From an uncultured Acetobacteraceae bacterium (GTDB lineage Bacteria > Pseudomonadota > Alphaproteobacteria > Acetobacterales > Acetobacteraceae), in NCBI GenBank assembly GCA_903900905.1, contig CAIUPC010000309.1, positions 1-37,311 of the forward strand: a DNA stretch of 37,311 bases. The letters are read 5' to 3'. The position numbers and the translations under genes were made by a program. Positions 15,641-19,676 of the stretch are shown in pieces; position 1 is the first letter of the stretch; the number at the start of each line of letters is the position of its first letter. Below the pieces are notes generated by a model. The model ran no database searches, was not told the origin of the DNA, and saw only the letters and a list, made by a program, of their open reading frames with translations.

Positions 15641-16195
15641 ATGAGCAACAGATTCCGGTTTCTGGGCGGGCAGCGCGGGGTGTGGCGGGTGACCGGGATG
15701 ACCGCGGTCTCCGGCGCCGGGCTCGATCCCGTCGCTGCCGTCGATGTCGTCAACAACGCCAGCCCGGATGTCCCAGATGGCACCAGCTGGGTGTTGCAAG
15801 GCTTCACCAGCAACATCCGCTATGCGACCACCACCGAGTTGCGGACGCTACAAGCGATCCAGCAACCGCCGGGTCGGCCGGATTCCACCCGCGCGGCGCT
15901 GATCCCACTTAAGAAGACCAGCCAATGGTGGGACCTGCCGCAGGACGCCCGCCGCCGCATCTTCGAGGAAACCTCCCACCATACCGAGATCGGCCTGCGC
16001 TACCTCCCGCCCATCGCGCGGCGGCTGCATCACTGCCGCGATCTCGGCGAACCCTTCGACTTCGTCACCTGGTTCGAATGCGCGCCCGAATACAGCGCGG
16101 CCTTCGACGACCTGCTGGCGAAACTGCGCGCGACGGAGGAATGGTCCTTCATCGAGCGCGAAGTGGATATCCGCCTGGAGCGGGCCCACGGCTGA
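15641..16195 (+). CDS. cld: chlorite dismutase-like heme protein, short dimeric type
   Basis: 184 residues, which matches the short dimeric (clade II) chlorite dismutases such as that of Nitrobacter winogradskyi. The C-terminal ferredoxin-like half shows 'HHTEIGLRYLPPIARRLHH' and 'FDFVTWFE'. His114 fits the proximal heme ligand and Arg127 fits the distal arginine; as I recall, these are the same numbers as in the Nitrobacter enzyme. Such enzymes turn chlorite into chloride and O2 using heme b. Presence of the distal Arg favours true chlorite activity over the HemQ-like branch, but this needs testing. No signal peptide. GGAAG lies 6 nt before the ATG. It is the first gene of an operon with the selenoprotein, 20 bp downstream. 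Confidence 0.8.
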   Translation: MSNRFRFLGGQRGVWRVTGMTAVSGAGLDPVAAVDVVNNASPDVPDGTSWVLQGFTSNIRYATTTELRTLQAIQQPPGRPDSTRAALIPLKKTSQWWDLPQDARRRIFEETSHHTEIGLRYLPPIARRLHHCRDLGEPFDFVTWFECAPEYSAAFDDLLAKLRATEEWSFIEREVDIRLERAHG

Positions 16196-16215
16196 ACAAT
16201 CAAGGAGGATGCTGC

Positions 16216-17421
16216 ATGGCACGCCTGGACGACATACCCGAACCAACGCGAACCGCGGTGCGGGATATCCCCTGCCCCGCCTTCGACACCACGCCCTTCG
16301 TCTCCGGCCCGGCTTTGTCCGAGCGCCGGGTCGCCATCGTCAGCAGCGCGGCGCTGATCCAACGCGGCGACAAGCCCTTCGACTTTGGTTCGGGCGAATA
16401 CCGCGCCGTGCCCGGCGGCTGGGATAACGCCGATATCCTCATGAGCCATGTCTCGACCAACTTCGATCGGGCCGGCTTCCAGCGGGATATCAATGTCGCC
16501 TACCCGATCGACCGGCTGCGTGAACTCGCCGCGGAAGGGGTTATCGGCTCGGTCGCCGAGACGCATTTCACGGTGATGGGATCGACCGATCCGGCTGCCA
16601 TGCTGGCCTCCGCCGACGGCATCGCCGCCGCGCTGAAGGCCGACAACGTCAACGCCGCCGTCCTCTGCCCCGTTTGACCGCTGTGCACCCGCGCCGTGAG
16701 CGCGATGGCACATATGCTGGAAGAACGAGGGATTGCGACGACGGTATTGGCGCTGGCGCTGCCTCAGGTTGAGAAAACCAGACCGCCGCGCGCGGTGATG
16801 ACACCGTTCATGCTCGGGCGGCCGCTGGGTGAACCGAACGATGCCGCGTTCCAGCGGCGGGTGCTGCTGCAGGCCTTGAACCTGCTGGAACGGACCGATG
16901 GGCCGATCATCCTTGCGCATTTCGAGGACGACAATCCCAGCTGGTTCGATCGTCTGGACTGGGTGCCGGCGGTATCCCTGCCCACGCCGGGCTCCTACGA
17001 GTCGGCTGCCGCGTGGGAGGCAGCGCTACGGGCCGAGATGGCGTTGGTCCTGCCGGTGTGGGAGCGGTTCAAGACCCGCTTCAACCGCACGACGGTCGGT
17101 CTGGCGGGGCAGCCGCCCCAGGATTGGCCGGCTTTCGCGACATCGTTCCTGGACGGCGCGTTGCCGACGGTGCCGTTGCACGACACGCCGGCCTTGGCGC
17201 TGCGGTTCCTGGCAGACGATCTGAAGGCTTTGTACGGCGAGGCCGTGCAGGCCGATGGCGCGCCGCCCTCGGCACGGCAGATCGACTGGTGGTTCTGGCG
17301 CCAGACGGTGGCCGGGCAATTGCTGATCGCGCTGCGCTCCGCGGCCATGGTCAGTGAGAACAACGCCCTGAAGACGGTGGGCGGGCGCTTCTTCGTGCCC
17401 GTGCCTTTTCTGCCAGTGTGA
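16216..17421 (+). CDS. GrdB-family selenoprotein, in-frame TGA read as selenocysteine (Sec154)
   Basis: 401 residues if the TGA at 16675-16677 is read through. The first part (1-153) carries the pattern of the glycine/sarcosine/betaine reductase selenoprotein B family ('CPAFDTTPFVSGP', 'HVSTNFDRAGF', 'THFTVMGSTDP'). The part after TGA continues in the same frame without a stop as 'PLCTRAVSAMAHMLEERGI', so TGA gives a Sec-Pro-Leu-Cys redox motif where the family has Sec or Cys. AAGGAGG lies 7 nt before the ATG at 16216. The ORF track splits it into 15925-16677 and 16696-17421, which are both partial. A SECIS-like hairpin follows the TGA. The true substrate is unknown; the genuine clostridial enzymes act in amino-acid reductases, but the partner subunits are absent here. 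It sits in an operon with chlorite dismutase, which points to a redox role (inference). A nonsense mutation is the alternative. Confidence 0.82.
16682..16712 (+). promoter_or_regulatory. SECIS-like hairpin directing selenocysteine insertion
   Basis: Four nt after the TGA, TGTGC (16682-16686) pairs with GCACA (16708-16712). After a 3+3 nt internal loop, CGCGC (16690-16694) pairs with GCGCG (16700-16704). The apical loop is CGTGA and carries the GU typical of bacterial SECIS elements. The loop begins 17 nt after the TGA, inside the 16-37 nt range described for bacteria. The hairpin lies in coding sequence, as bacterial SECIS elements do. Confidence 0.7.
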
Positions 17422-17461: not shown

Positions 17462-18811
17462 TCACCCCATCACGACCAGCCGCACCAACACGCCCAGCGC
17501 AGCGGTAATGCCGAGCGTCTTCAAAACCCCCAGCTTCAACCGGAACAGGCACAGTGCCGCGACCGCCGCCAGAACCAGCGCGGCCAGGTCCACGCTCGCC
17601 AGCACCGGCAGATCCACCGACATCGGCCCGGCGCGCAGCGGAACATGGTCGTGAAACACCACATGCAGCGCGAACCACACCGCGAGGTTGCCGACAACGC
17701 CCACCACCGCAGCCGTGACCGCGGCCAAAGCCCCGGACAAGGCCCGATTGGAGGCCAGCCGCTCGATCAGCGGCGCCCCCAGGAACACGAACACGAAGCA
17801 GGGCGCAAAGGTCACCCATAGGGTCAGGATCGAACCCACGATTCCGCCCGGTACTCCCGTCAAGCCGCCCGGCGCGCGAAACCCGGCCAGAAATCCAACA
17901 AATTGCAGCACCAGGATCAGCGGGCCCGGCGTGGTCTCCGCCAAACCAAGCCCGGCCAGCATCTCGGCCGGGGCGAGCCAGTGGTACGCCTCCACCGCGT
18001 CTTGCGCGACATAGGCCAGCACCGCATAGGCGCCGCCGATGGTGACCACCGCCATCTTGGAGAAGAAGAACGCGATATCGGCGAAGGTGCCGCCGACGGT
18101 CAGCATCAGATACGCCACCGGGGCCAGCCACAGCACCGCGGCAATCCCCCCTGCCCGCCGCGCGCTCGCCGCCAGCCGCGCCGGGCGTCCGGGATCGGCG
18201 TCCAGCACCGCGTCAATCAAGGCGGGGCCGTCGTGTTTGGCCTTGCCATGCCCGGCATGGCTGAAATGATCGGGTATGAACCAGCCAATAGCCCCGGCGA
18301 CCAGCACCATCGCCGGGAAGGGCACGTGGAAGAAGAACAGTGCCACGAAACCCGCCGCCGCCAACGCCCAGGCGACCCGGCCCTTCAACGCCCGGCGGCC
18401 GATACGCAACAGCGCCTCGATCACAAAGACCAGCACCGCGCTTTTCAGCCCGAAGAACAGCGCGTCGATGACCGGGACATGCCCGGCCAGCGCGTAAATC
18501 AGGGACAGTGCCAGCATCACGATGGCGCCGGGGATCACGAAGATTATCCCCGCCGCCAGCCCGCCTTTCACCCCATGCATCAGCCAGCCGAGATAGGTGG
18601 CGAGCTGCTGCGCCTCCGGCCCCGGCAGCAGGTTGCAGAAGCTCAATGCATGCAGGAACCGGCGTTCGCCGATCCAATGGCGTTGATCGACGACTTCTTT
18701 GTGCAAGAGGGCGATTTGGCCGGCGGGTCCGCCGAAGGACAGCAGGCCGATTTTCAGCCAGACCCGGAAGGCGGCCGCGAAAGTTGGCATCCGGCTTTCG
18801 GCGTCGTTCAT
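17462..18811 (-). CDS. chrA: chromate efflux transporter ChrA (long-chain CHR family)
   Basis: 449 residues, inner-membrane protein of about 10-12 hydrophobic segments built from two homologous halves, the long form of the CHR family. Signature stretches are 'SFGGPAGQIALLHKEVV' and 'NLLPGPEAQQLATYLGW' in the N-terminal half and 'GGAYAVLAYVAQDAV' with 'ETTPGPLILVLQFVGF' in the C-terminal half. It exports chromate in characterised members. Its ATG overlaps the stop of chrB by four bases (ATGA), so the two are translationally coupled. It converges on the selenoprotein gene across a strong hairpin. Confidence 0.93.
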   Translation of the reverse strand: MNDAESRMPTFAAAFRVWLKIGLLSFGGPAGQIALLHKEVVDQRHWIGERRFLHALSFCNLLPGPEAQQLATYLGWLMHGVKGGLAAGIIFVIPGAIVMLALSLIYALAGHVPVIDALFFGLKSAVLVFVIEALLRIGRRALKGRVAWALAAAGFVALFFFHVPFPAMVLVAGAIGWFIPDHFSHAGHGKAKHDGPALIDAVLDADPGRPARLAASARRAGGIAAVLWLAPVAYLMLTVGGTFADIAFFFSKMAVVTIGGAYAVLAYVAQDAVEAYHWLAPAEMLAGLGLAETTPGPLILVLQFVGFLAGFRAPGGLTGVPGGIVGSILTLWVTFAPCFVFVFLGAPLIERLASNRALSGALAAVTAAVVGVVGNLAVWFALHVVFHDHVPLRAGPMSVDLPVLASVDLAALVLAAVAALCLFRLKLGVLKTLGITAALGVLVRLVVMG

Positions 18812-19626
18812 CCCTTTGCCCCCGTTGATGGCCAGTTATGGGTTTCCCCGACCGCATCGCGGCTCCAGCGATAGAATGCATCGTACAGGCCCATCGATGC
18901 ATCCAATTGCGCGAGATCATCGCGATACATCCGCGACAGGCCCAGCGAGGCCGCCAGCAGCCCGGCCGACTGCGGTGCCAGATCGAGGCAATCCGTATCA
19001 GCACCGCGGATGATGGTGGCGAGGCGCGACAGGGCCGGGGATTGCAGGCCGAACTCTTCCAACATCACGTCGAACGTGCAGAGCGGCCCGCGGTGGCTCC
19101 AGAACACGCCTTCGATATCGAACGGGGTGGCGCCGAAACGGTCTGCCACGTCACGCACCTCGGATGGGGCGACGAACAGGAACACCGCGCCCGGATCGAT
19201 AAAGCGGCGGATCAGCCAGGGGCAGGCCACGCGGTCGATCTTGGGGCGGGACCGGGGGACCCACAGGGTGCGGCCGCGGTCGTCGCGCGGCGGGACGTGA
19301 TCGGGGCGGACCAGCATAGCCTTCGCCTCGGCCCAGCCCAGAAACCCGGCTTCCAGGGATTCCGCCCGCGCGCCGGCATAGCGCAGCCAGGCCGCGACTC
19401 CGTGGCTGAGTTTCAGCCCCTTCTGACAAACCACCGCGACGGCGCGTCCTTGATAGGCCGCACCCCAGGTGGCGACGGTGCGATAATCATGGCGGATCGC
19501 GCCAGGCAGCATGCGGCTATCCGCGGCGAAATCCTGATCGATACGGACGTCGATGATAACGGGCGAGTCCGGTGTTCCGGCCAGGCGCGCAAGTTGAGCA
19601 ACAGAGATCACATCGGGCGTGGGCAT
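18808..19626 (-). CDS. chrB: rhodanese-ChrB fusion, chromate resistance protein
   Basis: 272 residues. Residues 1-95 form a rhodanese domain ('VIIDVRIDQDF') with Cys67 in the active loop 'CQKGLKLS'. Residues about 110-270 are the ChrB C-terminal domain ('WVPRSRPKIDRVACPWLIRRFID', 'FDIEGVFWSHRGPLCTFDVML'). ChrB is linked to chromate-dependent control or handling next to ChrA; the usual N-terminal ChrB domain is replaced here by rhodanese, so regulation by this protein is doubtful. The ATG at 19626 has AGGAGGGG upstream and is preferred to the track start at 19671. The stop overlaps the chrA start. Confidence 0.88.
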   Translation of the reverse strand: MPTPDVISVAQLARLAGTPDSPVIIDVRIDQDFAADSRMLPGAIRHDYRTVATWGAAYQGRAVAVVCQKGLKLSHGVAAWLRYAGARAESLEAGFLGWAEAKAMLVRPDHVPPRDDRGRTLWVPRSRPKIDRVACPWLIRRFIDPGAVFLFVAPSEVRDVADRFGATPFDIEGVFWSHRGPLCTFDVMLEEFGLQSPALSRLATIIRGADTDCLDLAPQSAGLLAASLGLSRMYRDDLAQLDASMGLYDAFYRWSRDAVGETHNWPSTGAKG

Positions 19627-19676
19627 AGCGTCCCCTCCTGCATGGGAGTTCGGACGCGATTCTTTAGCCAAAGCCT

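What the first reader, a model, noticed from the sequence alone, without database searches (positions are those of the whole stretch)
16216..17421. In-frame TGA in a GrdB-family gene is very likely a selenocysteine codon
Seen directly: the frame from 16216 is open to TGA at 16675-16677 and then open again, in the same frame, to 17421. The TGA is followed by CCG CTG TGC, giving Sec-Pro-Leu-Cys. A two-tier hairpin (16682-16712) with apical loop CGTGA begins 4 nt after it. From family knowledge, this family has Sec or Cys at this place in a U/C-x-x-C motif. Automatic annotation will split the gene and lose the C-terminal 60 percent.
Basis: partly seen in the sequence, partly recalled or inferred. 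Interest (0 to 1): 0.9.

Follow-up and report, generated by a model that had tools for sequence, protein, structure and literature searches.

The report
Selenocysteine-containing PrdB/GrdB-like reductase gene
An apparent stop codon in the middle of this gene from an acetic-acid-bacteria relative is almost certainly read as the rare amino acid selenocysteine, giving a 401-residue redox enzyme of unknown substrate whose relatives in other alphaproteobacteria carry the same signal and whose few selenium-free relatives carry ordinary cysteine there.

Summary
The selenocysteine reading is strongly supported. Of 73 homologues in Alphaproteobacteria, 69 have TGA at this codon and four have Cys. CCGT at the hairpin apex is present in 69/69 TGA genes and 0/4 Cys genes. 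Codons 159-161 have the lowest synonymous variation in the gene. The part after the TGA is under the same purifying selection as the part before (dN/dS about 0.1-0.3). selA is found in 62/66 TGA genomes and 0/4 Cys genomes; in one relative the gene lies beside selD-selA-selB-tRNA-Sec. The window's own MAG has selD and two selB genes, but selA and selC were not found, probably an assembly gap. Sec of clostridial PrdB aligns in the same column. The protein is not PrdB or GrdB proper: it misses those cut-offs and has an extra helical C-terminal domain with no Pfam or PDB match. It is a PrdB/GrdB-related two-domain selenoprotein subfamily; the substrate is unknown.

The parts
16216..17421 (+). Selenoprotein gene, 401 aa with Sec154, stop TGA 17419-17421
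16675..16677 (+). In-frame TGA = Sec154 codon of UPLC (U-x-x-C) motif
   Evidence: TGA in 69 homologues, TGC/TGT in 4; Sec of clostridial PrdB in same column
16682..16712 (+). bSECIS-like hairpin; loop CGTGA 16695-16699; upper stem 16690-16694/16700-16704; lower stem 16682-16686/16708-16712
   Evidence: upper helix 93.5% of cells paired, lower stem only in part of the homologues
16202..16208 (+). Shine-Dalgarno-like AAGGAGG, 7 nt before ATG
   Evidence: read directly
16312..16899 (+). PrdB-like domain (residues about 33-228)
   Evidence: TIGR04483 E 7e-31, below its cut-off; AF2 model
17005..17394 (+). C-terminal all-helical domain (residues about 264-393), no Pfam match

Best explanation
The gene encodes one 401-residue selenoprotein. 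At UGA 16675-16677, SelB carrying Sec-tRNA(Sec) binds the hairpin just downstream (apical loop CGUGA) and inserts selenocysteine instead of terminating (supported by comparative evidence; insertion itself not measured). The protein is a PrdB/GrdB-related oxidoreductase in which Sec154 sits between a beta strand and the start of a helix (AF2 model) and forms a U-x-x-C redox pair with Cys157 (inferred). By analogy with PrdB, the selenol most likely attacks and reduces a small substrate and is recycled through a selenyl-sulfide with Cys157, with the C-terminal helical domain, absent from PrdB, shaping or covering the active site (inferred; substrate unknown).
For: TGA in 69 and Cys in 4 of 73 homologues at one column. 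C-terminal part under purifying selection like the N-terminal part (dN/dS about 0.1-0.3 in both). Synonymous minimum at codons 159-161. Apical CCGT 69/69 vs 0/4 in Cys forms. Three short paralogues with TGA have the same CCGTG apex on different, rebuilt stems (CAGAC/GTCTG, CAATC/GATTG). selA in 62/66 TGA genomes, 0/4 Cys genomes. Linkage to selA within 0.14-16 kb in 13 genomes and selD-selA-selB-tRNA-Sec(TCA) beside it in G236. Sec of clostridial PrdB aligns in the same column. AF2 model continuous across the TGA, pLDDT 93.5, pTM 0.91.
Against: selA and tRNA-Sec not found in the window's own MAG nor in G004; a gap at this locus is suggested but not proven. The four Cys forms group together with modest support (0.78), so the Sec/Cys-selA association may reflect few events. 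Hairpin folding energy alone is unremarkable; the lower stem is not general (67% paired). Enzyme activity is inferred only.
Confidence: 0.95

Rival explanations
1. The TGA is a true stop: the gene is a pseudogene or two separate ORFs (GTG start at 16696 for the second).
For: Mechanical ORF calling gives two ORFs; selA/selC not found in this MAG.
Against: Stop conserved in 69 homologues at one codon with Cys as the only alternative; purifying selection after the stop; invariant U/C-P-x-C; one continuous high-confidence fold; the GTG 16696 lies inside the hairpin loop and corresponds to Val161.
Confidence: 0.02
2. The TGA is read as another amino acid (Trp, as in code 4) or by ordinary readthrough, not Sec.
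For: TGA is evidently decoded in frame.
Against: The same gene ends with TGA in this and most homologues; the alternative residue is Cys, never Trp; Sec machinery co-occurs and is linked.
Confidence: 0.02
3. Selenoprotein as stated, but the function is a general selenol/thiol oxidoreductase or a selenium-linked role rather than PrdB-like reductive cleavage of a metabolite.
For: No recurrent metabolic partner gene in 13 fetched neighbourhoods; frequent linkage to sel genes; extra C-terminal domain; distance from PrdB/GrdB models.
Against: The whole N-terminal domain is PrdB-homologous (TIGR04483 E 7e-31) with the active-site motif conserved.
Confidence: 0.45

Closest known systems
PrdB, D-proline reductase small subunit (TIGR04483)
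   Same: Homologous over residues 33-227; Sec in the same alignment column in clostridial and lactobacillar PrdB (UGTC vs UPLC)
   Different: Scores 107.5 vs cut-off 300; extra C-terminal helical region of about 170 aa; CTR instead of CHR in the motif; no recurrent partner gene such as prdA beside it in the neighbourhoods examined
GrdB/GrdF/GrdH, glycine/sarcosine/betaine reductase selenoprotein B (PF07355, TIGR01917/01918, NF040794/5)
   Same: PF07355 above gathering (32 vs 22 bits); matches the part of the NCBIfam models around the U-x-x-C site
   Different: Only the C-terminal part of the GrdB profiles matches, and in this protein it is N-terminal; all NCBIfam cut-offs missed
Short alphaproteobacterial 'glycine/sarcosine/betaine reductase selenoprotein B family protein' (about 300-335 aa)
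   Same: About 30-38% identical paralogues in the same genomes, UPVC/CPVC motif, the same CCGTG SECIS apex when Sec-containing
   Different: PVCHQ rather than PxCTR motif; lacks the long C-terminal domain
Sec-containing PrdB sequences of the marine GOS/Sargasso surveys (PMC2398784, PMC1088965)
   Same: pfam07355-type, UxxC, abundant in marine bacteria
   Different: Could not be compared; some may belong to this very subfamily

Membership tests
Bacterial selenoprotein gene | In-frame TGA conserved, with Cys in the remaining homologues | tested here: met
   69 TGA, 4 TGC/TGT
Bacterial selenoprotein gene | Hairpin with G in the first two loop positions, apical loop about 16-37 nt after UGA (bSECIS rule, from own knowledge) | tested here: met
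   Loop CGTGA starts after 17 intervening nt; conserved
Bacterial selenoprotein gene | selB and selD in the genome | tested here: met
   selB 410 bits (C492) and a partial second copy, 319 bits (C714); selD 307 bits
Bacterial selenoprotein gene | selA and selC in the same genome | tested here: inconclusive
   Not found in this 922-contig MAG; selA present in 62 of 66 TGA genomes
Bacterial selenoprotein gene | Sec demonstrated in the protein | not testable with these tools
   needs 75Se labelling or mass spectrometry
PrdB (TIGR04483) | Score above curated cut-off of 300 bits | tested here: not met
   107.5 bits for the window protein; best E among 42 homologues 2.6e-36
PrdB (TIGR04483) | Encoded with PrdA | tested here: inconclusive
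   No recurrent partner in 13 fetched neighbourhoods; prdA itself was not searched in whole genomes
GrdB (PF07355) | Pfam gathering score 22 | tested here: met
   32 bits, residues 81-151 only
GrdB (TIGR01917/01918) | Curated NCBIfam cut-offs and GrdB domain order | tested here: not met
   38.5 vs 602.2 and 43.6 vs 65.45 bits; the matched part is C-terminal in the model and N-terminal here

The most novel reading that the evidence does not exclude
A distinct, undescribed two-domain selenoenzyme subfamily (PrdB-like domain plus a C-terminal helical domain with no Pfam or PDB relative), found in roughly 8% of sampled alphaproteobacterial genomes, that works without PrdA/GrdA partners and catalyses a Sec-dependent reduction not yet known.
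Probability: 0.45. Interest if true: 0.65.

Novelty: new variant of a known kind. Interest (0 to 1): 0.45.

Why it matters
Annotation that stops at TGA would cut this protein at residue 153 across many Alphaproteobacteria, and no NCBIfam cut-off is reached that would rescue it, so a fairly common selenoprotein, possibly one reason these bacteria keep the Sec machinery, is likely missing or mangled in public genomes. No solved structure relates to it by sequence or fold search and no substrate is known. The conserved CCGU apex, shared with a paralogous selenoprotein, is a usable signature for finding other alphaproteobacterial selenoproteins.

Tried and rejected
Neighbouring genes as functional partners: the chlorite-dismutase-like gene 15641-16195, 20 nt upstream, is matched next to only three homologues (G011 a 31-aa remnant, G007 80 aa, G076 downstream on the other strand), and the LysR and chromate-transport neighbours are not conserved, so no operon inference was made. 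PDB and viral fold searches gave no match with E <= 0.001. tRNA-Sec candidates in the MAG were ordinary tRNAs (Leu, Tyr, Ser, Gly, Cys). An attempt to prove the selA/selC gap through contig C521 gave only suggestive synteny; the first 120 bases of C521 show no selA start. One SelB lineage being tied to the gene: not seen, several SelB clades occur among gene-bearing genomes. Hairpin energy as evidence: rejected, z only -1.47. A first extraction that ignored strand was redone.

Full report
Observation. The hairpin belongs to the minimum-energy structure, but its energy is not exceptional against dinucleotide shuffles, so the case has to rest on comparison.

Context. The window is one whole contig (C309) of a 5.59-Mb, 922-contig genome. 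Public contigs carrying the closest homologues are mostly titled Acetobacteraceae and one is titled Rhodopila.

Homologues. A protein search of 59 relatives found 18 full-length copies in the genus, counting the window's own, each with exactly one in-frame TGA. An alignment search of 398 family and 385 class genomes added further full-length copies, almost all with one TGA and a few with no stop. In the combined set, 69 sequences have TGA at codon 154 and four have TGC or TGT (L118, L209, L213, L214). The motif is P-V/I-U/C-P-x-C-T throughout. In bona fide PrdB from Peptoclostridium, Acetoanaerobium and Ligilactobacillus salivarius the in-frame TGA falls in the same alignment column (UGTC).

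Selection. dN/dS is about 0.1-0.3 on both sides of the TGA in pairwise comparisons with close relatives, so the downstream part is translated and constrained. Among columns whose amino acid is conserved, synonymous variation is lowest at codons 159-161 (GCC in 69 of 69, CGC in 63 of 65), exactly under the upper stem and loop; permutation p about 2e-5 for codons 155-168. The upper helix is paired in 93.5% of cells, with two pairs changing on both sides; the lower stem pairs in 67%. CCGT at the apex is present in all 69 TGA genes and in none of the four Cys genes. Three short PrdB-like paralogues with TGA carry the same CCGTG apex on quite different but complementary stems, which is good evidence that the loop is the recognised element.

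Machinery. The window's genome holds a complete selB on C492, a second, partial selB at the end of C714, and selD. selA and tRNA-Sec were not found. In relatives they are adjacent, so a single gap would remove both; C521 preserves the gene order found beside selA in G011 and ends about where selA should begin, which is suggestive only. Over the TGA genomes, selA is above cut-off in 62 of 66; the exceptions are G000, G004, G282 (partial hit) and G678 (a Rhodopila-like contig in a bin of another family, possibly misplaced). None of the four Cys genomes has a real selA (Fisher p 7.6e-5). Caveat: the Cys forms group together with support 0.78, so the genomes are not independent observations. In 13 genomes the gene lies 0.14-16 kb from selA; in G236 one 9-kb contig holds the gene, a selD-containing frame of 806 aa, selA, a selB-sized frame directly after it, and tRNA-Sec with anticodon TCA. 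The selB identity of that 648-aa frame is inferred from position and length; it was not scanned.

Protein. AlphaFold2 with 42 homologues gives one continuous, confident model (pLDDT 93.5, pTM 0.91); residue 154 lies between strand 147-151 and helix 155-170. Residues 33-227 match PrdB; residues 264-393 are all-helical and match nothing in Pfam. No PDB chain matches by sequence or by fold at E <= 0.001. NCBIfam cut-offs are missed for the window protein, and all 42 homologues match the same five PrdB/GrdB models.

Mechanism. Supported by comparison: Sec at 154 and a SECIS-like hairpin. Inferred: a U-x-x-C redox pair, substrate reduction in the manner of PrdB, and a role of the C-terminal domain at the active site. 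No partner gene recurs in the neighbourhoods, so the substrate cannot be named.

Known work. Sec in PrdB and GrdB with U-x-x-C is established (PMC13188914), and Sec-containing PrdB is among the commoner selenoprotein families in marine metagenomes (PMC2398784, PMC1088965). What may be new is the two-domain subfamily and its spread in Alphaproteobacteria; I could not check whether the marine sequences include it.

Verdict. Since the family is known to use Sec, the surprise is moderate; the open question is the reaction.

Noticed in passing
G000:C492 (L137) and G000:C714 (L138); also G004, G007, G009, G011, G016, G022, G032: Eight genomes of this genus carry two diverged selB genes (51% identity between the two in the window's genome, 42% in G011); all eight also carry this selenoprotein gene, but no single SelB clade is tied to it.
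   Followed up: partly
L136, L225, L226: Short PrdB-like paralogues with in-frame TGA (UPVC) share the CCGTG SECIS apex with different stems; the copy in the window's own genome (L135, G000:C122) has Cys instead.
   Followed up: partly
15641-16195: Chlorite-dismutase-like protein (PF06778, 36.3 bits) ending 20 nt upstream of the selenoprotein gene, probably co-transcribed here but rarely found near other homologues.
   Followed up: partly
17462-18811 and 18808-19671, - strand: Adjacent chromate efflux transporter and ChrB-C/rhodanese-domain protein, a likely chromate-resistance pair.
   Followed up: no
L132 1672-4089; G000:C869: SelD occurs in frames of about 700-850 aa in several genomes, longer than SelD alone, suggesting fusion to another domain.
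   Followed up: no
L182 / L048 (G678:C98): A close homologue (80% identical) sits on a 6-kb contig of a bin from another family, titled Kuenenia, without selA: probably a misplaced contig.
   Followed up: partly
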